DNA from: Isoetes taiwanensis
Taxonomy: Eukaryota > Streptophyta > Lycopodiopsida > Isoetales > Isoetaceae
Assembly: GCA_021234155.1 (NCBI GenBank)
Contig: JAJEKV010000037.1
Coordinates: 1,054,001 to 1,118,000, forward strand
Reading direction: 5' to 3'
DNA: 64,000 bases
Positions 8,989 through 47,650 of the stretch are shown here, piece by piece (positions within the stretch are counted from its first letter, which is position 1; each line of letters begins with the position of its first letter). Below the pieces are notes generated by a model, which had not been told where the DNA came from, made no database searches, and was given only the letters and a program-made list of their open reading frames with translations. The position numbers were made by a program, and so were the translations under genes.

Positions 8989-8999
8989 CTGCTCGAGAT

Positions 9000-10048
9000 C
9001 ATTCCAGGTGTTGAGGGATCACCGAACCCCATACTTCTGCCCTATACAAGAGGACCGGCTCAATCAAGGCCCTAAACAAGTGTGATTGGTGGCCCCAGGC
9101 ATACAGCTCTGCCTTGTGGCTGTTGTTCTGCATGGCATATAGTGCTTTCCAACCTGCCGTGACCCGCAATCTGATGGCCGCATCCCAGTGGGTGGTAGCA
9201 GAGAACTCGATCCCCAAGTACTTGTAGGTCGGAGCCACCTCTACATCTTGTCCCTGGTAAGTGAATGAGGGAAGCCTTGGCTGACTGGATGATGAAACTA
9301 GTAGCACCCTAGTTTTGGCCAAGTTAACTTGCATGCCAGTAAATCGGCAAAAAGTGTCAAGAGCATCCAGGTGATGTTGCATATCCCCTGGAGTATAGGC
9401 CAGAAGGTTGACGTCGTCAGCATATATGAGTTTCCGGATTGTGTGATGCATAAGATGGGCGCCCGCACCTTCGTGCTCAAAAAGCCAATCTTCAAGCTGG
9501 TCAATGTATAGGCCAAAGAGTGTGGGGAAGAGGGGACAACCCTAACGCACTCCAATACTACCGACACGGCTGTCCCGAAGATGTGATATGGCCCGAAAGC
9601 ATGCCTCAGATAGCCTATATATTGCATTCCTCGCAAGTCAAGGGGGGGTACCCAAACCGCCGCAACCGCTCCATAACTTATCCCGGGCACTCGGTCAAAA
9701 GCTTTTGGCGAAATCCACGTAAAACAACAAAGATGCATTTTGTTGGTGATTCCTGCTATCCTCAATCAGTATGTGCAGAGTGAAGATATGATCAATGGTG
9801 GAATGCCTGAGCCAAAAGCATGCCTGTGTGAGAGCTTGCACATCTACCTCCTCTGCCCATATTGTCAGCCGCTGCTCAAGGATGCCAGCCAACAGTTTTG
9901 CAAAGAGAGAGCTGACCATAATAGTACGATAGTTGGCTGGGCATTGAGAGTCCCCTGCCTTGTACATGGGCACAACTCTACTAGTAGTCCACTGCCGAGG
10001 GAAGCCTTCTTGCAATGCTTTATTGAATAATGCCGTGAGGACAGCCAT
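9000..10048 (-). pseudogene. LINE A reverse transcriptase
   Basis: Three overlapping frames cover the RT. 10048-9695 has FPRQWTTSRVVPMYKAGD, NYRTIMVSSLFAKLLAGILE and FYVDFAKSF (first catalytic Asp). The 9765-9298 frame has the continuation, with the cysteine and glycine motifs damaged. 9451-8999 has LIYADDVNLLA and the primer-grip region, then HLFRALIEPVLLYRAEVWGS. At least two frameshifts separate them, so the copy is dead. Confidence 0.85.
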
Positions 10049-16517: not shown

Positions 16518-16612
16518 TACACGTGGAAGATGAACGTGGCATAATGACAAGGCAGTGGTTTGGTCAACAGAAAGCCGTAACGACCAAAAATGGCGTTAAG
16601 CAATGTATAAAT
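16518..16612 (+). promoter_or_regulatory. Candidate promoter of the cysteine-rich peptide gene
   Basis: A TATA box (TATAAAT, 16606-16612) lies 40 bases before the ATG, giving a short leader. Upstream are a G-box (CACGTGG, 16520-16526), an ABRE-like ACGTGGC (16534-16540) and an inverted W-box (GGTCAA, 16562-16567; TTGACC on the other strand). These are known binding cores for bZIP and WRKY factors. Their use here is inference. Confidence 0.55.
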
Positions 16613-16651: not shown

Positions 16652-17008
16652 ATGGCGGGAGTTTTGGTGGTGGCCACCGTAATTCTTTTAATTGTCAAAA
16701 TGGCAGCACAAAATGATGGAGCTCAATCTCCGGCCCTTTTGATGGATTTCGCCAATCAGCCTCTTTCTCCGTCACCATCTGGGCCATATTCTGCATCTGC
16801 ACCAGAATCACAAGGATCCCGTTTGCCGGATTATACAGAGAGGGCCAGTAGAAGAAGAATGTGTTGTTACCGTTGGGGCCCCTGTGGCGTCTGGCCTCAA
16901 GCTGTTGTTTATGCTTATGAATACGACAGACTATGCTGCTGGAATTGGGCCCTCTGCTATCCTAATTGCTACTTCTGGCGAGGTCGCCAGATTTGCGAAA
17001 ATGTATGA
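16652..17008 (+). CDS. Small secreted cysteine-rich peptide precursor (unrecognised family)
   Basis: Single-exon 118-residue protein. The ATG sits in a strong plant context (AAAGATGGCG), 40 bases after a TATA box. Residues 3-15 are strongly hydrophobic, giving a likely signal peptide cut near MAA (residues 17-19). Residues 20-66 form a Ser/Pro/Ala-rich, weakly acidic propeptide. An RRR tract (67-69) precedes a 49-residue C-terminal domain with eight cysteines at 71, 72, 78, 95, 96, 102, 106 and 115. The spacing is CC-x5-C-x16-CC-x5-C-x3-C-x8-C, with five Trp and six Tyr. This layout suggests a secreted, proteolytically processed, disulfide-rich peptide, either defence or signalling. The spacing is not one I recognise from plant defensins, thionins, hevein or snakin/GASA. 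AATAAA-type signals follow at 17094-17101. Function is unknown. Confidence 0.75.
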   Translation: MAGVLVVATVILLIVKMAAQNDGAQSPALLMDFANQPLSPSPSGPYSASAPESQGSRLPDYTERASRRRMCCYRWGPCGVWPQAVVYAYEYDRLCCWNWALCYPNCYFWRGRQICENV

Positions 17009-17375
17009 CACACCAGTTAGATTTGTCTGTACATAAAATATCAGCCGATAATCTGGAGCTCTTCTTTGATACTTTGGGTACTTTAGCAGCTCTATAAATA
17101 AACCCAATCAGTTGCTGTACTACATTTGCTGTTTCGTCTAAATTCTATGGCATATGTTAAGTTAATGTTTACTTACAAGCATGGCACTTATCGTTGTTAC
17201 TTTTCTTTGTGAATTACAACCACGTATGTCAAGCATATTCTATTTTCGCAATATACACATAGAAGATTGCTACAGTGTTGTGAGGTTGATGTTAGAAGGC
17301 ATAATCATAATCAAAATCTCGTCAGTATGTGATGGAATAGAGCGCTTGGTTAATATACTCAAGTACATCCCACCG

Positions 17376-17766: not shown

Positions 17767-17879
17767 GATAATTTTCACCGATGAAAAATTTCGCCGTGAA
17801 ATTTCTGGCGTCGCCAAGATCATGAGCTCAAGGTCGCCAGGAAATTTCACGGCGAAATTTTTCGTCGATGAAAATTACC
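17767..17879. repeat. Long near-perfect foldback hairpin
   Basis: Left arm 17769-17810 and right arm 17835-17877 are complementary over about 42 bases with only a few mismatches or gaps. Both contain the core GAAATTTCACGGCGAAATTT or its complement. The loop is about 24 bases. It could be a foldback or MITE-type element or a small-RNA precursor. No gene overlaps it. Confidence 0.85.
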
Positions 17880-17899
17880 TCACGAAAAAACAGGGGGCT

Positions 17900-20244: not shown

Positions 20245-21348
20245 TCAACAAGCAGCTGCAAATGGCTGAGCAGATTGCAATATGCCATTTGACATTTGTT
20301 GAAATTTAATTCGTTTCTTGGGAGGAAGCACAAAGGTATCCCTTTCTAAATTTCCATCTTCTGCCTTGTCCTGCTTCTTCTGGGGCTCAGCAGCTGGAAG
20401 CCTTATTTTTATCTTATGAATGTCTCTCTTCTGAGTCTCAGCAGCAGCTGGAAGCCTTATCTTTATCTTATAACTGCCTCTCTTCTCAACAGAATTCGAA
20501 TTCGAATTGTGTTTGATGATCCAGGGATGGGATAAAATCTGCTGCAGTGTAATTCTGTCCTCTGCTTTGGGCTTCAACATGGCCAAAACTAAATCCTTTG
20601 CTTCCTCACAAACTACATCATCAGGCCAGTCTAAGTAAGAAGCAGCCAAATCTACTCCGTCAATGAGTTCTTGGTAAATCCCCCACACGTTTAAACATGG
20701 AAAAACAGGAAGGCCAGTAAGAGATTCATACAAAATGAGACCGAGATCCCAGATATCAATTTCGGTGGAGTAGCTTGTGAGAACAACCTCTGGAGCAAAG
20801 TAGATTGGAGTTCCGACAATCTCTGTAAAACTAGGAACGGAATCTGAGAAACAAGCGGAAAGCCCAAAATCTGCGATTCTGACATCATAGGGAGCTGCAG
20901 GCGAGGCGAGGAGAATGTTTGCAGGCTTGAGATCTCTGTGGATGATACCATGGTCGTGCATGTGCAGTACAGTGCGTGCGAGATTTGCGATAAGAAGGGC
21001 GGCTTGGTTGGGGGGCAGTTTGCCGTTGGTTTGGATGAAACGATCCAAGCTCAATTCACAGAGCTCCATGATGAGATGGCAATAATCTCCTTGGTCTTCC
21101 ATGATTACGTCTTCCAGATGAACAACCCCAGGGCAGCCGGATAACTTACGCAGGATTTGCTCCTCCAGCCTGGCCTCTGAGCTTTCGGAGAACGTTTTGC
21201 ACGCCACCTTCTTCTTGCTCCGCCTATTCCTACACAAATACACCGTTGCCTGCGAACCTTTGCCCATTTTGCCCATCACCTCGTACTCCTCCATCAGCTT
21301 AGGATATGCTGCCATCTCCTTCTCCACCGAGTTCCTGTATCTCGCCAT
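20245..21348 (-). CDS. Ser/Thr protein kinase with repeated basic C-terminal tail
   Basis: Intact 367-residue single-exon kinase. The glycine loop is GKGSQATV (29-36, third Gly replaced by Ala). Also present are the ATP-binding Lys51 in VACK, probable alpha-C Glu63, catalytic HRDLKPAN (137-144), DFG (160-162), FAPE (184-187), DIWDLG (198-203) and the subdomain XI Arg265. HRD plus the Lys and Asp in HRDLKP mark a Ser/Thr kinase, most like the plant CDPK/PEPRK-related group; no EF hands follow. The tail holds KIKIRLPAA twice (294-302 and 312-320, 18-residue period) and a basic PPKKRIKF (342-349), a candidate nuclear localisation signal. Substrate is unknown. A poly(A) signal AATAAAA lies at 20140-20134. 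The start ATG (ATGGCG) has good context. Confidence 0.85.
   Translation of the reverse strand: MARYRNSVEKEMAAYPKLMEEYEVMGKMGKGSQATVYLCRNRRSKKKVACKTFSESSEARLEEQILRKLSGCPGVVHLEDVIMEDQGDYCHLIMELCELSLDRFIQTNGKLPPNQAALLIANLARTVLHMHDHGIIHRDLKPANILLASPAAPYDVRIADFGLSACFSDSVPSFTEIVGTPIYFAPEVVLTSYSTEIDIWDLGLILYESLTGLPVFPCLNVWGIYQELIDGVDLAASYLDWPDDVVCEEAKDLVLAMLKPKAEDRITLQQILSHPWIIKHNSNSNSVEKRGSYKIKIRLPAAAETQKRDIHKIKIRLPAAEPQKKQDKAEDGNLERDTFVLPPKKRIKFQQMSNGILQSAQPFAAAC
20365..20469 (-). repeat. In-frame tandem duplication in the kinase tail
   Basis: A 54-bp unit encoding KIKIRLPAA plus a Gln/Lys-rich stretch occurs twice in tandem, adding a second basic-hydrophobic motif to the C-terminus. Confidence 0.8.
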
Positions 21349-23957: not shown

Positions 23958-25621
23958 TTACACTAGATACCCACTATCACCAAGACAAACGTGGGATAGC
24001 AAAATATATACCCCAGCATTATCCGGAGCCAATTGAAGCACCTGTTCTGCTGCAAATCTAGCCCGCAGAATATCATCATGAGTTCTGCATGCAACAAGCA
24101 AGGCTGTCCATGCTGTATCGTCAGGTTGAATTGGCATCCTGTTCACAAAGTCTTCTGCCTCATCTAGCCAGCCTGCTCGTCCAAGAAGGTCAATCACACA
24201 ACCATAATGCTCAACCAGCGGTACAATACCTTGTGCTTCCCTGATGGAAACAAAGAAGTGGCATCCTAGATTCAAGAAGCCGGCATGGCTGCATACTGAG
24301 AGAATACTAGAGAAAGTAATCACATTAGGCTTAATCCCCTTACCCTGCAGCTGTAATAGAAGTTTCATAGCATCAACCCCACAGCCATGTTGCGCATATG
24401 CTGCAATCATTCCATTCCAAGATGCTATATCTTTGTGCGGTATCTTATCAAACACAGAACGTGCATCGACCAGATTTCCACACCTACTATACATATTGAT
24501 AAGACTGCTCGCTACAACAACATCAAATTCCAAATCACTCTCAATAATCTGGGCATGGATTATCCTACCCTCTGATAGAGCTCCAATACCGGCACATGCC
24601 GCCAGGATGGTACAGAAGGTGATTGAATCAGGCTTCACGCCTTCGTTTTGCATCTGTTGAAACAGTTCAAATGACTGTTCAACGTGCCTGTTATTGGCAT
24701 ACACTGCAATCATAGCAGTCCAGGAAAAGTGGTCATGTTCAAGCATGTTTTGGAAGATGCTATATGCATCATCAAAACTTCCACATTTGCTATACATTAC
24801 AACAAGAGAATTCCCAAGAACAACATTCAATACAGCTTGCTGACTACAAACGATGCGAGCATGGATGACTCTACCTTGTGGAAGATCCTCCTGTTCTGTG
24901 CATGCAGCAAGGAGTGTGCTGAAAGTAAAAGAGTCTGGAGGAGTCAACATCTTGCGGAAGAATCGCAAGGCCTCTTTGTTTTCCCCACACTGGATATATG
25001 CTGCAATCATGGTGTTCCATGATATAATATTGGGCTGCTGCATTCTCTCGAATATCATCCTTGCATGATCCAAATTGCCAACCATCCCACACATTCGCAT
25101 GATAGCAGTTCCTACAACAAAATCCAGTTCCAGACTTACATATACAATGCAAGCATGTATTATCTTACCTGCCGAGAACGATTCTGGTCCCGTGCAAGCT
25201 TTGAGAAAGGCAAGAAAGCAAACCTTGTCCATTTTTATGTGCGCACTCTGCATTCTTGGGAACAACTTCAGGGCATCCTTATCATGCCCATTCAAAGTAT
25301 AAGCCACAATCATTGCAGTCCATGAGAACACATTTCTTTGGGGCATTGCTTCAAATACTTTCCGAGCATCTGCCACAGCATCGCACTTGCCATACATTTC
25401 AATCAGAAGATTTCCTAAATACATGATACGCCCTAGCCCCCGTTTTTCAATTTGCTCATGCACTTTCCTGCCTTCAGACAATGACCTTGTATTGGCACAG
25501 TGTCGCAAAATTTGGACGTAATCCTGCTTCTGCTTTGGCAAAGATTGTTCCTTTTTCTTCCACCAAAAGTGAACAATGCGACCATCGCCCGAATCCTGGA
25601 CACCATAGCTGCCTTTTGCAC
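23958..25621 (-). CDS. PLS-type pentatricopeptide repeat protein, exon 2
   Basis: Main exon of a two-exon PPR gene (579 residues when joined to 25707-25782). It encodes about a dozen PPR motifs in P-L-S order, visible as repeated WTAMIAVY, TFCTILAACAGIGALSEGR, IHAQI and NMYSRCGNLVDARSVF phrases. Then come L2/S2 motifs (YGCVIDLLGRAGWLDEAEDF) and a partial E motif. It stops after GVYILLSH plus a short divergent tail, with no DYW deaminase domain. Such proteins bind organellar RNA sequence-specifically; E-type members usually assist C-to-U editing. An upstream in-frame TTG at 25541 is not the start. The frame is open to the 3' splice site at 25622, and splicing supplies the ATG. The truncated E region may mean partial loss of editing function. 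Confidence 0.8.
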
Positions 25622-37519: not shown

Positions 37520-38449
37520 ATGTCTAGCAGATTTGGAGCAAATCTGCTTAACGCCATTGAGGTGTTCAAAGGGGAAAGTGGTTTCCAAGTCTGGAAACAA
37601 AGTATCCAGGAAGTCCTGGAGTTTGAAAACCTGTGGTATTTAGTTGATCCTAAAGCAAGCAGGAGATCTAGTGCTAATGCTGGTGCAGGGTCAACCAGGA
37701 GAGCCAGTTCAAGCTCAAGCACAGGGGATTCCACAGCTGGTGGAAGTGGTGAAGCTAGTATAGCTGCTGCAGAAAGTGCAGGTCCAACAGTCACCTCAAG
37801 TGTGTCAACTGATGAGGTAATTAAGATTAAAGAGGCTCAAGCTATCATTTGCTGTAAGGTTGGAACAGCTATTAAGCTCAAGCTTAGAGGGCTAAGCCCT
37901 AGTGAAATGTGGACCTACATGGTCACAAATTATGAAGTTAAAACATCATCCCAGATTGATGTTTTAGAGAAGCAGTTGAGAAAACTAAAGCTACATGAGA
38001 AAGATAATATAACTGAATTTTGTGAAAAATTTGATTCCATTGTAGCAGATCTAGAAGGAGCAGGTGTTATATTAAATGAGCAATATCAATTGCTGGCTAT
38101 TTCCAGGGCTGTTTCTCACAATGCTTACTTGGCTACTCTTTTAAGGAATATTGCAAGAACCAAAGATCATGCAATACAAATGATACGAACTGAATTTGAA
38201 CAGAGGCAGTTTGGCCAAGATGAAGACGAACAAGCTGCAGAAGTACTTTATGCAGGTAAACATAAGGAAAAAAGAGGATTTGGAAAGGCTGGCAGGGACA
38301 AAGTTGGACCTTGTTATAATTGCAATGCATATGGTCATTTAAGGGCTGATTGTCCAAAAACAGGGAAGGAAGTTATATGTTACAATTGTGATGGTAAAGG
38401 CCACTTTGCTTCCAAATTGTCCCCCAAATCAAAGGGGCGAGAATGCTAA
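37520..38449 (+). CDS. gag: Copia gag (capsid and nucleocapsid)
   Basis: Encodes a 309-residue gag-like protein starting MSSRFGANLLNAIEVFKGES. It has the copia gag domain (FQVWKQSIQEVLE, then LRKLKLHEKDNITEFCEKFD) and a Ser/Ala/Gly-rich insert near residues 52-95. It ends in two zinc knuckles: CYNCNAYGHLRADC is complete, but CYNCDGKGHFASKL loses its last Cys through a frame change at about 38415. In the intact family, gag and pol would be read as one polyprotein. Here gag ends at a stop at 38447 instead. Confidence 0.85.
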   Translation: MSSRFGANLLNAIEVFKGESGFQVWKQSIQEVLEFENLWYLVDPKASRRSSANAGAGSTRRASSSSSTGDSTAGGSGEASIAAAESAGPTVTSSVSTDEVIKIKEAQAIICCKVGTAIKLKLRGLSPSEMWTYMVTNYEVKTSSQIDVLEKQLRKLKLHEKDNITEFCEKFDSIVADLEGAGVILNEQYQLLAISRAVSHNAYLATLLRNIARTKDHAIQMIRTEFEQRQFGQDEDEQAAEVLYAGKHKEKRGFGKAGRDKVGPCYNCNAYGHLRADCPKTGKEVICYNCDGKGHFASKLSPKSKGREC

Positions 38450-39325
38450 AGGCAAAACCAGAGGTAGAGGCAAAGGGACATTCATACAAAAAGGAAAGGG
38501 AGGTTCTAAAGATAATCCAGCATTAAATTTAACACAGGAGGCTCGAAGTGAGGAGGACGAGCAAAATGAAGATGATGAGGTTAGTTATGCTAAATTATGT
38601 CATTTGATGCATGATAATGATCACAATATGATAATTATAGATTCAGGAGCTGAGAGGACAGTAACATCATCCGCAAAGTTGCTTAAAGATTGCAAGAAAG
38701 TAAAAAGTGGACATGTGCAACTAGGAAATGGTGATTTGCAAGAAATCAAAGATACAGGAATGCTTGAACTGTATGATCTTGAAGGAAGGTCATCAAGTTA
38801 GAAAATGTGCTTTGTGTTCCAGGTTTAGTTAGAAATCTGATTTCAGTTTGCCAGTTAGTTGATCTTGGGTATAAAGTTCTCTTTGAGAGATTGGAATGTA
38901 AAGTGTTTCTCAATAATAAACTCAAGTTTCTTGGTAAAAGAATTGGCAATTTATTTGGTTTAAACTTGAATCATTATGTTCCAAGTGTTAACCTTGTAAC
39001 ATGTGCAAGTACAAAAACATGGCATGAGAGAATGTGCCATGTAAACTCTAAAACTGTCAAACTTATGATCAAGAAGGGGCTGATCAAGGGCACAACTGAT
39101 GATAATGAGAAGCTTAAATGTGTTGGCTGCATTTTAGGCAAGCATAGTAGACTTCCTTTTAAGAAATCAGAAAAAAGGGCAAAGAATAAGCTGGACTTGA
39201 TACACACAGATTTGTGTGGGCCTTTAAATGTTACTAGCATTTCTGGAAAAAGGTATTTTATGACCTTTATTGATGACTATAGTAGAATGACCGAGTCTAC
39301 ATCGCTTGAGCACAAAAAGACCTAG
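38388..39325 (+). pseudogene. Copia protease and integrase N-terminal part
   Basis: The frame after gag carries the aspartic protease motif IIIDSGAERTVTSS (about 38632-38680), then stops at 38799. The next piece (38807-39325) has the GAG-pre-integrase HHCC zinc site (H..H in WHERMCHVN, CVGC) followed by the integrase core start (DLIHTDLCGPL, MTFIDDYSRM). A stop at 39323 breaks the core. These would mature the polyprotein and insert element DNA, but the chain is interrupted. Confidence 0.85.
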
Positions 39326-40160
39326 CATTGGAAGCATTTAAAAAATTTGCAAATGAGGTGCAAGTTGAAACAGGGAGGAAAATCAAATGCTTAAGGTCGA
39401 GATAGGGAGGAGAGTTCATGTCTAATGAATTCAAGCAATATTGCAATATACATGGCATTAAGAGGCAACTGACATGCAGGTTCTCGCCTCAGCAAAATGG
39501 GATTGCTGAAAGGAAGAATAGAACCATTCTCAATGCTGCAAGGAGTATGCTAAAATACTCTGGTTTACCAAATTTCCTTTGGGAAGAAGTCATTTAAGCG
39601 CAGCATGTGCAAAAAACCAGCCACCATCCTTAAGTATCAAAGGAGAAATTCCAGTTATATTATGGGCTAACAAAACACCAGACTATGAAAGGCTTAAGGC
39701 CTATGGATGTCTGGCATTTGTTCATGTGCCAGATGAGTTGAGGAAGAAGCTTGATGACAAAGCTTATATTACATACCTGGTTGGGTATGACCAAGAATCA
39801 AAGGCATACAGGGTTTATGATCCAAGCAAAAGGAAAATTCTAATTAGCGTGGATGTTGTATTTGATGAAGAACAATACTACAAGGTATTACCGAGGATCA
39901 ACAATCGGGTCAAACAGATAATAATCACGGGATTGAGGAAGTACCAAATATTCCGTAAAGAAAAGGTCGAGCCAACAATCACGCTTGGATGGGATGAGGA
40001 AGATGAACAATTGCTAACCCACCATAATGTTATTGCTGATGACAATGTGCAGCAAAGCGAGTTCAAGATCAACAAGATGAGGTACAAAATAATGTTGTTA
40101 AAAAGAAAAGGAAAGGAGGACGGCGAGAAATGCTTAAGGGGAAGCCGCTACACAACATGA
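39326..40160 (+). pseudogene. Copia integrase core end and C-terminal part
   Basis: 39400-39600 still encodes GGEFMSNEFKQYC and FSPQQNGIAERKNRT, the latter with the catalytic Glu, but has a stop in the motif before GGEF. 39579-40160 continues with LKAYGCLAFVHVPDELRKKL, YLVGYDQESKAYRVYDPS and an acidic linker. Several frame changes separate the parts. Confidence 0.8.
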
Positions 40161-40257
40161 TCTACTTGGACGTGATGCCTCGGTAGGAGCGTAAGATTGA
40201 AAGAAAAAAAAGGTGAGATTCTTGGACTCTTTGAAATTCTAATGCATTTGGATGTAG

Positions 40258-41834
40258 TCAGTACCTAAAACATATGATGAAGCCGTAACCTCACATGATT
40301 GCAAAAACTGGCTGAAGGCTATGAAAGAAGAAATGCAATCATTTGAGAGAACAAACACTTATGAGGTTGTAGATACTCCTAGTAACAAGAATATTGTTGG
40401 TAACAAGTGGTTGTACAAGATAAAGACTCAAGCGGATGGAGTGACACCAAAATTCAAAGCAAGGTCGGTTGCTCAGTGGATTTACCCGAGGTATGGACAA
40501 GATTATGAAGAAACCTTTTCTCCTCTGGTAAAATGAATAGCATAAGAATGCTATCACAATTGCAAATGTTTGCAGACTTGGAAGTACATCATATGGATGT
40601 AACTAATGCTTTCTTGAATGCGAGACTTAGAAGAAGAAATCTATATGAAAATACCTCCGTGGTTTTGAAAAAAAAAATGGAAAAGTATGGAAATTAAAAA
40701 AGGCAGTTTATGGCCTTAAACAATCCCCAAGGGAATGGTACAGGTGTATAGATTCCTTTCTTAGAGAGCAGGGCTTTGGAAAATTGCAAAATGATGGCAA
40801 TATTTACAAATTTCATAGAGGAGCTGAGTGGTGCATAATAGCTCTCTATGTAGATGACAATATAATGGTAGCTAATGGCATTGATATTTTGGAACATTGC
40901 AAGAACATTCTCGAAAAGCAAATTTAAAATGTCGATCTAGGTGAGTTGAAGAAATTTCTCGGGCATAGAAGTTCATAGAAATAGGGAGAACAAAACTCTG
41001 ACATTGACTCAAAGAGGACAGATTGAGGGAATGCTCAAAAAGTTCAAAATGACTGAATGTAATATCAGCAATACTCCAATAGTTCCAGGTTGCAAACTCT
41101 CAGCAAAAATGTGTCCAAAGACAGATACAGAACGAGAGGAAATGAGTAATGTACCCTATATGTCATTGATTGGTTGTTTGTCCTATGTTGCCAACTGTAC
41201 TAGGCCAGACATTGCTTATGTGGTGAATATGCTGAGCAGATACAACAATGACCCAGGAAAGGAGCATTGGATGGCAGCTAAACGTGTGCTTAGATACTTA
41301 AAAGGTACAATGAATCATGGAGTTAGCTATGATACAGAAAATTTACAATTGCATGCTTATTGTGACGCTGATTGGGGAGGAGATCTAGATACAAGGAAAT
41401 CCACTTCAGGATATTTAACATTCTTAGGGGGTGCTCCTGTTAGTTGGAAATGCAAAAAGCAAAATGCTACAGCCATGTCAAGTGCTGAGGCTGAATATGC
41501 CTCAGCTGTATTAGCTACCAAAGAAGTAATATGGGAAAGAAGGCTGCTAATAGAACTTGGTTTCAATCAAACCAAGGCCACTGAATTGTACTGTGACAGT
41601 ACAAGCTGCATTGCAATGACGAAAGATCCTGTCTTTCATGAAAGATCTAAACACATAGAACTTGAACTTCATTTTATCAGGGAAATAGTTGCAAAGGATA
41701 TAGTCAAGTTGGTATATGTTAACACAGCCAAGCAGCTAGCCGATCTGCTCACAAAACCCCTGGCAGTGACAAAATTTACAGAGTTGAAGTGCATGATTAA
41801 ATGTGTGGATTACAACATGAAGGGGGAATGTTGA
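40258..41834 (+). pseudogene. Copia reverse transcriptase and RNase H
   Basis: 40300-40536 gives the RT start (TYEVVDTPSNKNIVGNKWLY, QDYEETFSPLVK). 40540-40920 gives the middle, including LYVDDNIMV with the catalytic YVDD near 40846-40857. 41004-41834 is an uninterrupted 276-residue frame with the RT end and RNase H (HAYCDADWGGD, STSGYLTFLGGAPVSWKCKK, AEAEYASA, LYCDSTSC). At least three frame changes or stops occur before 41004. The end abuts the polypurine tract. Confidence 0.85.
41819..41828 (+). promoter_or_regulatory. Copia polypurine tract
   Basis: GAAGGGGGAA immediately before the 3' LTR, the usual plus-strand primer position. Confidence 0.85.
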
Positions 41835-46927: not shown

Positions 46928-47650
46928 TTATATACACTTTTTTTGAGCCACGATCAGCGATGAAAAATATATATGAGAAGATGCAAAGACAAAGATAGCA
47001 ACAGTGACTCTGCCTGCAATTGCTAACCCTTTAGCAGACCACAACCCCATTTTTTTCCTAAGCCTGTCCAATATTGGGGACCATAAGCCTTTCATGCTAT
47101 CCGAGAGAGATAGTGGTAGACCTAGAAGCTTAACTGCCTCATTTGTTAACACCACCGGGAACCCAAGTTCTTTAGCACGAGGATCAATATCCCCATCCAA
47201 GGCCCATAGAGTAGAACATTTGTTTGCATTGAGCTCAATACCAGAAATATCCTTAAAGGCAACTAGAATATCACGAAAGGATTGGAAACTACTATCATCA
47301 AACCTGAGGAACATGAAGGTATCGTCTGCATACTGCATAATCGTAAGCTTCCCACCTTGTCCCGGAAGAGATAGTCCAGACATGGCACCTTCCTCCACTT
47401 TGAGGTTTACCATTTTTGTAAGAAGGCTAGCCATAATCACAAAGAGGTAGGGAGCTAATGGACATCCCTGGCGTATTCCCTTCCTGAGGTGAAATAGGCC
47501 TGAAGGCTCGCCATTAACAAGTACCGAGGCGGAGGCAAGCTTGTTCATGCCCATAGAGAGATTGATGAACTCACTCTGGAATCCCATATATTTCATAGTC
47601 TCTTGCAAACCTTCCCATCTAAGGGAGTCATAGGCCTTCCGAAAATCCAT
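46928..47650 (-). pseudogene. L1 copy D reverse transcriptase
   Basis: A 240-residue frame starting at DFRKAYDSLRWEGL (first catalytic Asp). It has GIRQGCPLAPYLFVIMASLL and the catalytic IMQYADDTFMFLR, then GIELNANKCSTLWALD and LGLPLSLS. These are the plant L1 signatures and differ clearly from LINE A-C. The N-terminal fingers lie in another frame upstream (47650-48192), so a frameshift breaks it. Confidence 0.85.

What the first reader, a model, noticed from the sequence alone, without database searches (positions are those of the whole stretch)
16652..17008. Unfamiliar 8-Cys secreted peptide precursor with prepro-RRR-mature layout
Seen: a 118-residue intact ORF with a hydrophobic N-terminus, Ser/Pro-rich propeptide, RRR, then 49 residues with CC-x5-C-x16-CC-x5-C-x3-C-x8-C, five Trp and six Tyr. 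The two CC-x5-C units (CCYRWGPC and CCWNWALC) look like an internal repeat. Known: prepro-peptides with basic cleavage sites and disulfide-rich ends are typical of plant defence and signalling peptides. Inference: a lineage-specific secreted peptide, possibly defence related. I do not recognise the spacing.
Basis: partly seen in the sequence, partly recalled or inferred. Interest (0 to 1): 0.75.

Follow-up and report, generated by a model that had tools for sequence, protein, structure and literature searches.

The report
Quillwort family of secreted 8-cysteine peptides
This stretch holds a real gene, one of a small, fast-turning-over quillwort family, for a probably secreted peptide with eight cysteines that matches nothing in the libraries searched; a defence role is likely but not shown.

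Summary
In detail: window 16652-17008 (+) is an intact 118-codon ORF with the stated layout and CC-x5-C-x16-CC-x5-C-x3-C-x8-C spacing. It is a gene-family member, not a chance frame. The genome, very probably Isoetes taiwanensis by assembly size, holds 13 family loci: 4 intact, 1 open but lacking the signal peptide, 8 disrupted. A diverged intact pair on another scaffold keeps all eight cysteines; between subfamilies the cysteine domain is constrained (omega 0.11 and 0.19, two pairs tested). They also share a promoter block with ABRE-like and W-box-like sites. Corrections: RRR is not conserved, only one Arg two residues before the first CC; the internal repeat is not significant in this copy but is in two paralogues. 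Against: this copy and its closest intact paralogue do not differ significantly from neutral evolution (omega 0.72, p 0.47), so this copy may be drifting. No significant Pfam or PDB match. Best reading: a lineage-restricted secreted cysteine-rich defence peptide; gene and secretion well supported, function inferred.

The parts
16652..17008 (+). Single-exon ORF, 118 aa, prepro-peptide of the 8-Cys family
16652..16711 (+). Putative signal peptide (residues 1-20; cleavage point inferred, about residues 18-20)
   Evidence: hydropathy 3.48 over residues 5-15; SignalP not available
16712..16849 (+). Ser/Pro-rich propeptide (residues 21-66)
   Evidence: poorly conserved between subfamilies
16850..16858 (+). 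RRR (residues 67-69); only the last Arg is shared by both subfamilies
16859..17005 (+). Putative mature peptide, 49 aa, 8 Cys
   Evidence: constrained between subfamilies
16862..16885 (+). Unit 1, CCYRWGPC
16934..16957 (+). Unit 2, CCWNWALC (CCWNWGPC, CCWNWAPC or CCFNWGPC in the other open copies)
16967..16996 (+). Tail CYFWRGRQIC, the best conserved stretch; pattern found only in 8 family loci, backward control 0
16520..16525 (+). CACGTG (G-box-like) at -132
16534..16567 (+). 34-base promoter block: ACGTGGCA (ABRE-like) to GGTCAA (W-box TTGACC on the other strand)
16606..16611 (+). TATAAA at -46
17097..17102 (+). AATAAA poly(A)-signal-like, kept in the aligned copies

Best explanation
A single-exon gene of a lineage-restricted quillwort (Isoetes) family encoding a secreted prepro-peptide. 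Probable steps: transcription from a TATA promoter with ABRE-like and W-box-like sites (sites seen; response to stress or infection inferred); entry into the secretory pathway by an N-terminal signal peptide (inferred from hydropathy); removal of a Ser/Pro-rich propeptide at the conserved Arg just before the first CC (inferred); oxidation to a compact 46-51 residue peptide with four disulfides (inferred from eight invariant Cys) that displays Trp/Tyr side chains from two CC-x-x-W-x-x-C loops. Most likely role: a host-defence peptide acting on microbial walls or membranes in the apoplast. The gene family and the constraint on the cysteine domain are shown by computation; secretion is likely; processing, fold and function are inferred. 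The window copy itself may be less constrained than its relatives.
For: 13 loci in the own genome, 4 intact with hydrophobic start. All 8 Cys and 22 invariant columns kept in the 5 open copies. omega 0.36 (p 0.003) for L016-L017; cysteine domain 0.11 and 0.19 between subfamilies, 2 pairs run. Cysteine-domain identity WIN-L016 57% against 30% in the prepro part. CDS gaps between WIN and L009/L010 are 6, 12, 3, 6 plus a 42-base truncation gap, against 2 of 15 noncoding gaps divisible by 3. Promoter block 25 of 34 bases identical WIN-L016 without gaps. Promoter pattern: 5 genome matches within 3 mismatches, all at family loci, 3 of them by construction. Birth-and-death with 8 of 13 loci disrupted fits defence more than conserved signalling (inference). 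Plant defence peptides are typically 2-6 kDa, Cys-rich, made as precursors with several domains (PMC4695807, passages).
Against: No expression, peptide or activity data. WIN-L009 omega 0.72, p 0.47; their cysteine domain alone gives 3.3 (p 0.21). The window copy has WALC where the other 4 open copies have WGPC or WAPC. CDS divergence WIN-L009 (6-7%) is hardly below upstream (7%) and downstream (10%). Net charge of the mature part is only 0 to +3 in the 5 open copies, low for a membrane-active peptide. The promoter block was found within 3 mismatches at only 5 of 13 loci, L009 not among them, and the backward control gave 1 match. The 4 promoter words were scanned without a shuffled control.
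Confidence: 0.5

Rival explanations
1. A secreted signalling peptide (cysteine-rich ligand in the manner of EPF/EPFL or other plant CRP ligands) read by a receptor kinase.
For: Precursor layout, constraint on the cysteine domain between subfamilies, weak net charge.
Against: Many disrupted copies and few intact ones, variable spacer of 10 to 18 residues, no Pfam match to any known ligand family.
Confidence: 0.22
2. A chitin-binding peptide working like hevein: two CC-x-x-[WY]-G-x-C loops present aromatic residues to chitin, by convergence or by remote descent.
For: CC-x5-C with aromatic at the third and Gly at the fourth place is the same in the own genome's hevein domains (CCSQYGWCG) and in unit 1 (CCYRWGPCG).
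Against: No match to PF00187 (none of the 148 listed genome matches lies at a family locus, in which only 150 of 217 candidates were scored). The two Cys before the CC of hevein are absent.
Confidence: 0.13
3. The window copy is a relic on its way to pseudogene, kept open by recency.
For: WIN-L009 omega not different from 1, WALC change; its segmental duplicate L018 is already broken.
Against: Full-length open frame, all 8 Cys, TATA and promoter block kept.
Confidence: 0.12
4. Chance ORF without function.
For: Short ORF in a repeat-rich window.
Against: Family, cysteine retention and between-subfamily constraint.
Confidence: 0.03

Closest known systems
Hevein-like peptides (Pfam PF00187, Chitin_bind_1)
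   Same: 8 Cys, CC-x5-C core with an aromatic residue and Gly in the loop.
   Different: Hevein domains of this genome have C-x8-C-x4-CC-x5-C-x6-C; the family has no Cys before the first CC, two CC-x5-C units and a different tail; no profile match.
Thionins
   Same: About 5 kDa, 8 Cys, double Cys near the N-terminus of the mature part (PMC8279376, passages).
   Different: Thionin precursors carry a C-terminal acidic domain with six Cys after the thionin; here the Cys domain is C-terminal and a Ser/Pro-rich segment precedes it; no Pfam match.
Ib-AMPs of Impatiens balsamina
   Same: CC and C-x3-C motifs (PMC4695807, passages); the family has C-x3-C in the C1042 copies (C-x7-C or C-x6-C in the C1025 pair).
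   Different: Ib-AMPs are 20 residues with 4 Cys, four peptides from one transcript; sequences not compared by tool.
L027, a single-copy 80-aa ORF on C1090 of the same genome
   Same: Hydrophobic start, then CC-x5-C-x10-CC-x5-C with CCYRWGGC and CCWQWGRC; spacing as in the C1025 pair.
   Different: Gly-rich, short tail C-x1-C-x4-C; tblastn searches in either direction do not connect it at E up to 10; probable but unproven relative.

Membership tests
Hevein-like (PF00187) | Profile match to Chitin_bind_1 | tested here: not met
   0 Pfam families for P0001 at E up to 10, 0 for 5 mature domains; full-length members only DUF1180 at 0.035 in 1 of 5
Hevein-like (PF00187) | Two Cys upstream of the CC (C-x8-C-x4-CC) | tested here: not met
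   no Cys between the RRR and the first CC
Hevein-like (PF00187) | Chitin binding | not testable with these tools
   needs protein
Thionin | C-terminal acidic domain after the thionin, with six Cys | tested here: not met
   ORF ends 3 residues after the last Cys; definition
Thionin | Double Cys at mature positions 3-4 | tested here: inconclusive
   CC is at 2-3 if cleavage follows RRR; true N-terminus unknown
Plant secreted cysteine-rich peptides (broad kind) | N-terminal signal peptide | tested here: inconclusive
   hydropathy only, 4 of 4 intact copies hydrophobic; SignalP not available
Plant secreted cysteine-rich peptides (broad kind) | Small size and an even number of conserved Cys | tested here: met
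   8 of 8 Cys kept in the 5 open copies
Plant secreted cysteine-rich peptides (broad kind) | Four disulfides and a defined fold | tested here: inconclusive
   single-sequence AlphaFold2 mean pLDDT 54.6 and 51.5
Solved structures | Sequence relative in the PDB | tested here: not met
   best E 0.37 for P0001 and 0.44 for the profile

The most novel reading that the evidence does not exclude
A lycophyte-specific disulfide scaffold built from two CC-[aromatic]-x-W-x-x-C loops plus a CYFW-x-G-R-x-I-C tail, outside every known plant cysteine-rich peptide fold, that binds microbial wall glycans by aromatic stacking, a convergent counterpart of hevein in a plant that also carries well over a hundred hevein-domain matches.
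Probability: 0.15. Interest if true: 0.62.

Novelty: new variant of a known kind. Interest (0 to 1): 0.42.

Why it matters
Small cysteine-rich peptides of lycophytes are little described: the literature searches made here listed no paper on such a family in Isoetes. A family with two subfamilies, intact and decayed copies, and a shared promoter gives a ready case for how such peptides arise and die outside flowering plants. If active, it would be a new peptide scaffold. Orphan families of this kind are common in plants (general knowledge), so surprise is moderate.

Tried and rejected
Hevein membership: tested and not met. PDB relatives: none significant. Bacterial and viral origin: 1 locus of 50 candidate stretches in genome contigs, a 14-residue chance-like match without the Cys motif; 0 of 42 in viral contigs. 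Mobile-unit idea: pairwise matches stop at similar points about 130 bases upstream and 250 downstream, but the boundaries are not sharp and some 3' flanks can be aligned by eye, so no transposition claim is made. More members by motif: pattern CC-T..-x-WG-x-x-C gave 57 matches against 74 for the backward control, so it is at chance by itself; 8 of the 57 lie in family loci, 14 others in the 12 stretches that were fetched, of which only L027 has two unlike units at the right spacing; 35 were not fetched. CCY-x-W-x-P-C gave 8 matches against 0 control; 6 are family, and the other two (L042, L043) lack a second unit. Of the fetched weak tblastn hits, L039 and L040 show no family motif; L021 (E 0.18) has LPDYFERGSRGRGKICCFLW, possibly a 14th decayed copy, not counted. 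In one search the L017 promoter comparison was one base out of register (7 of 34) and is not used; one search shows the in-register match.

Full report
Check. The ORF at 16652-17008 (+) is exact: 118 codons, hydrophobic start, Ser/Pro-rich middle, RRR, then 49 residues with CC-x5-C-x16-CC-x5-C-x3-C-x8-C. In hydropathy of the N-terminal part it ranks first of 137 ATG ORFs of 60-160 aa in the window.

Source. G000 has 1,658,258,908 bases in 1110 contigs. Isoetes taiwanensis has a published assembly of 1658.30 Mb in 204 scaffolds plus 909 contigs (PMC8566536, passages). The match in size is close, the count of pieces differs by three; the identification is an inference.

Family. tblastn with the ORF and with three paralogues gives 13 loci with best E of 4.1e-5 or lower. 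Intact with hydrophobic start: the window copy, C1042:989 kb (L009), C1025:17.42 Mb (L017), C1025:18.08 Mb (L016). Open but with the 5' end replaced by unrelated sequence: C1042:983.6 kb (L010). Disrupted or partial: C1037 (L011), two on C996 (L012, L015), C924 (L014), C1031 (L019), and on C1042 at 1027.8 kb (L018), 2.85 Mb (L020) and 2.88 Mb (L013). Four copies lie within about 87 kb of C1042. The window copy and L018 share about 2 kb at 90.5%, a segmental duplication in which L018 is broken. The search tool says its counts are lower bounds.

Conservation. In the 5 open copies all 8 Cys and, in the mature part, 22 columns are invariant. The spacer between units varies from 10 to 18 residues, and the stretch between Cys 6 and Cys 7 from 3 to 7. 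The tail pattern CYFW-x-G-R-x-I-C has 8 matches in the genome, all family loci, and 0 in the backward control. The tribasic site is not shared; the Arg two residues before the first Cys is.

Selection. Pairwise codon models (script): L016-L017 omega 0.36 (p 0.003), mature part 0.23 (p 0.005); WIN-L009 0.72 (p 0.47), prepro 0.35 (p 0.07), mature 3.3 (p 0.21); both pairs pooled 0.46 (p 0.005); between subfamilies, mature part, WIN-L016 0.11 (p 2.5e-6) and L009-L017 0.19 (p 2.8e-4). Only these two of the possible cross pairs were run in the model, and synonymous sites are close to saturation, so the values are rough. Counting methods agree in direction for L016-L017 (NG86 dN 0.079, dS 0.327). Gaps inside the coding region between WIN and L009/L010 are 6, 12, 3 and 6 bases plus a 42-base truncation gap, all divisible by 3, while 2 of 15 flanking gaps are (shared events counted per pair, and open copies were chosen for being open). 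Substitution differences WIN-L009: upstream 7.3%, prepro 6.7%, mature 6.1%, downstream 9.9%; so the coding part is only slightly slower. In broken L018 the coding part is the most diverged (14.5% and 20.3% against 7.0% and 11.6%). The family is therefore under constraint over the long term, but this copy shows little sign of it recently.

Promoter. WIN -118 to -85 and L016 -94 to -61 agree at 25 of 34 bases without gaps, with ACGTGGCA and GGTCAA at the ends; each of WIN, L009, L016 and L017 also has TATAAA 35 to 62 bases before the ATG. A pattern made from WIN, L016 and L017 with up to 3 mismatches finds those three plus C1031 and C1037, two further family loci, and nothing else; the backward control finds 1. 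That the sites respond to ABA or to WRKY factors is recalled knowledge of such motifs, not tested.

Possible distant relative. L027 on C1090 has a hydrophobic start and RW-CCYRWGGC-x10-CCWQWGRC with a short tail. BLASTP in single comparison: 1e-8 to L009, 4e-6 to L016. With Cys held fixed, 356 and 1165 of 20000 shuffles reach its identity to L016 and L017, and genome searches do not link it. It is reported as probable, not counted as a member.

Known families. No significant Pfam match and no PDB match. The hevein core CC-x-x-[YW]-G-x-C-G of the genome's own hevein domains resembles unit 1, but the profile and the two upstream Cys are missing. Thionin precursors have the opposite order of domains (PMC8279376, passages). 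Fold prediction failed.

Mechanism. Best reading: secreted, processed before the first CC, four disulfides, defence role in the apoplast; gene reality about 0.9, secretion about 0.85, defence about 0.5. Signalling and chitin binding are the main rivals.

Literature. Searches on Isoetes or lycophyte with cysteine-rich, antimicrobial or secreted peptides listed no paper describing this family; only listings were seen for those, and subscription journals are mostly not in the library.

Noticed in passing
G000, C1040 about 1.8-2.8 Mb, C985, C1088, C1036 and others: 148 matches to the hevein domain PF00187 at E up to 1 (217 candidates, 150 scored), many in clusters and in tandem pairs: a large hevein-domain expansion in this genome.
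   Followed up: partly
window 17770-17890: By eye, a palindrome-like stretch (GAAATTTC...GTCGCCA and its near reverse complement) just downstream of the gene, possibly a small inverted-repeat element.
   Followed up: no
window 37520-41834 (+): Consecutive ORFs that by eye look like a gag-pol retroelement (CCHC knuckles, integrase and reverse transcriptase-like pieces); reverse transcriptase-like ORFs also at 1505-1909, 8999-9451 and 46928-47650 (-).
   Followed up: no
window 20245-21348 (-) and 23958-25541 (-): By eye a protein-kinase ORF of 367 aa and a PPR-repeat ORF of 527 aa flank the peptide gene downstream.
   Followed up: no
L010 (G000 C1042:983.6 kb): The copy lost promoter and signal peptide: sequence upstream of the propeptide is unrelated to the other copies.
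   Followed up: partly
L027:744-983 (G000 C1090:2876343-2876582): Single-copy Gly-rich 80-aa ORF with two CC-x-x-WG-x-C units, GGTCAA at -70.
   Followed up: partly
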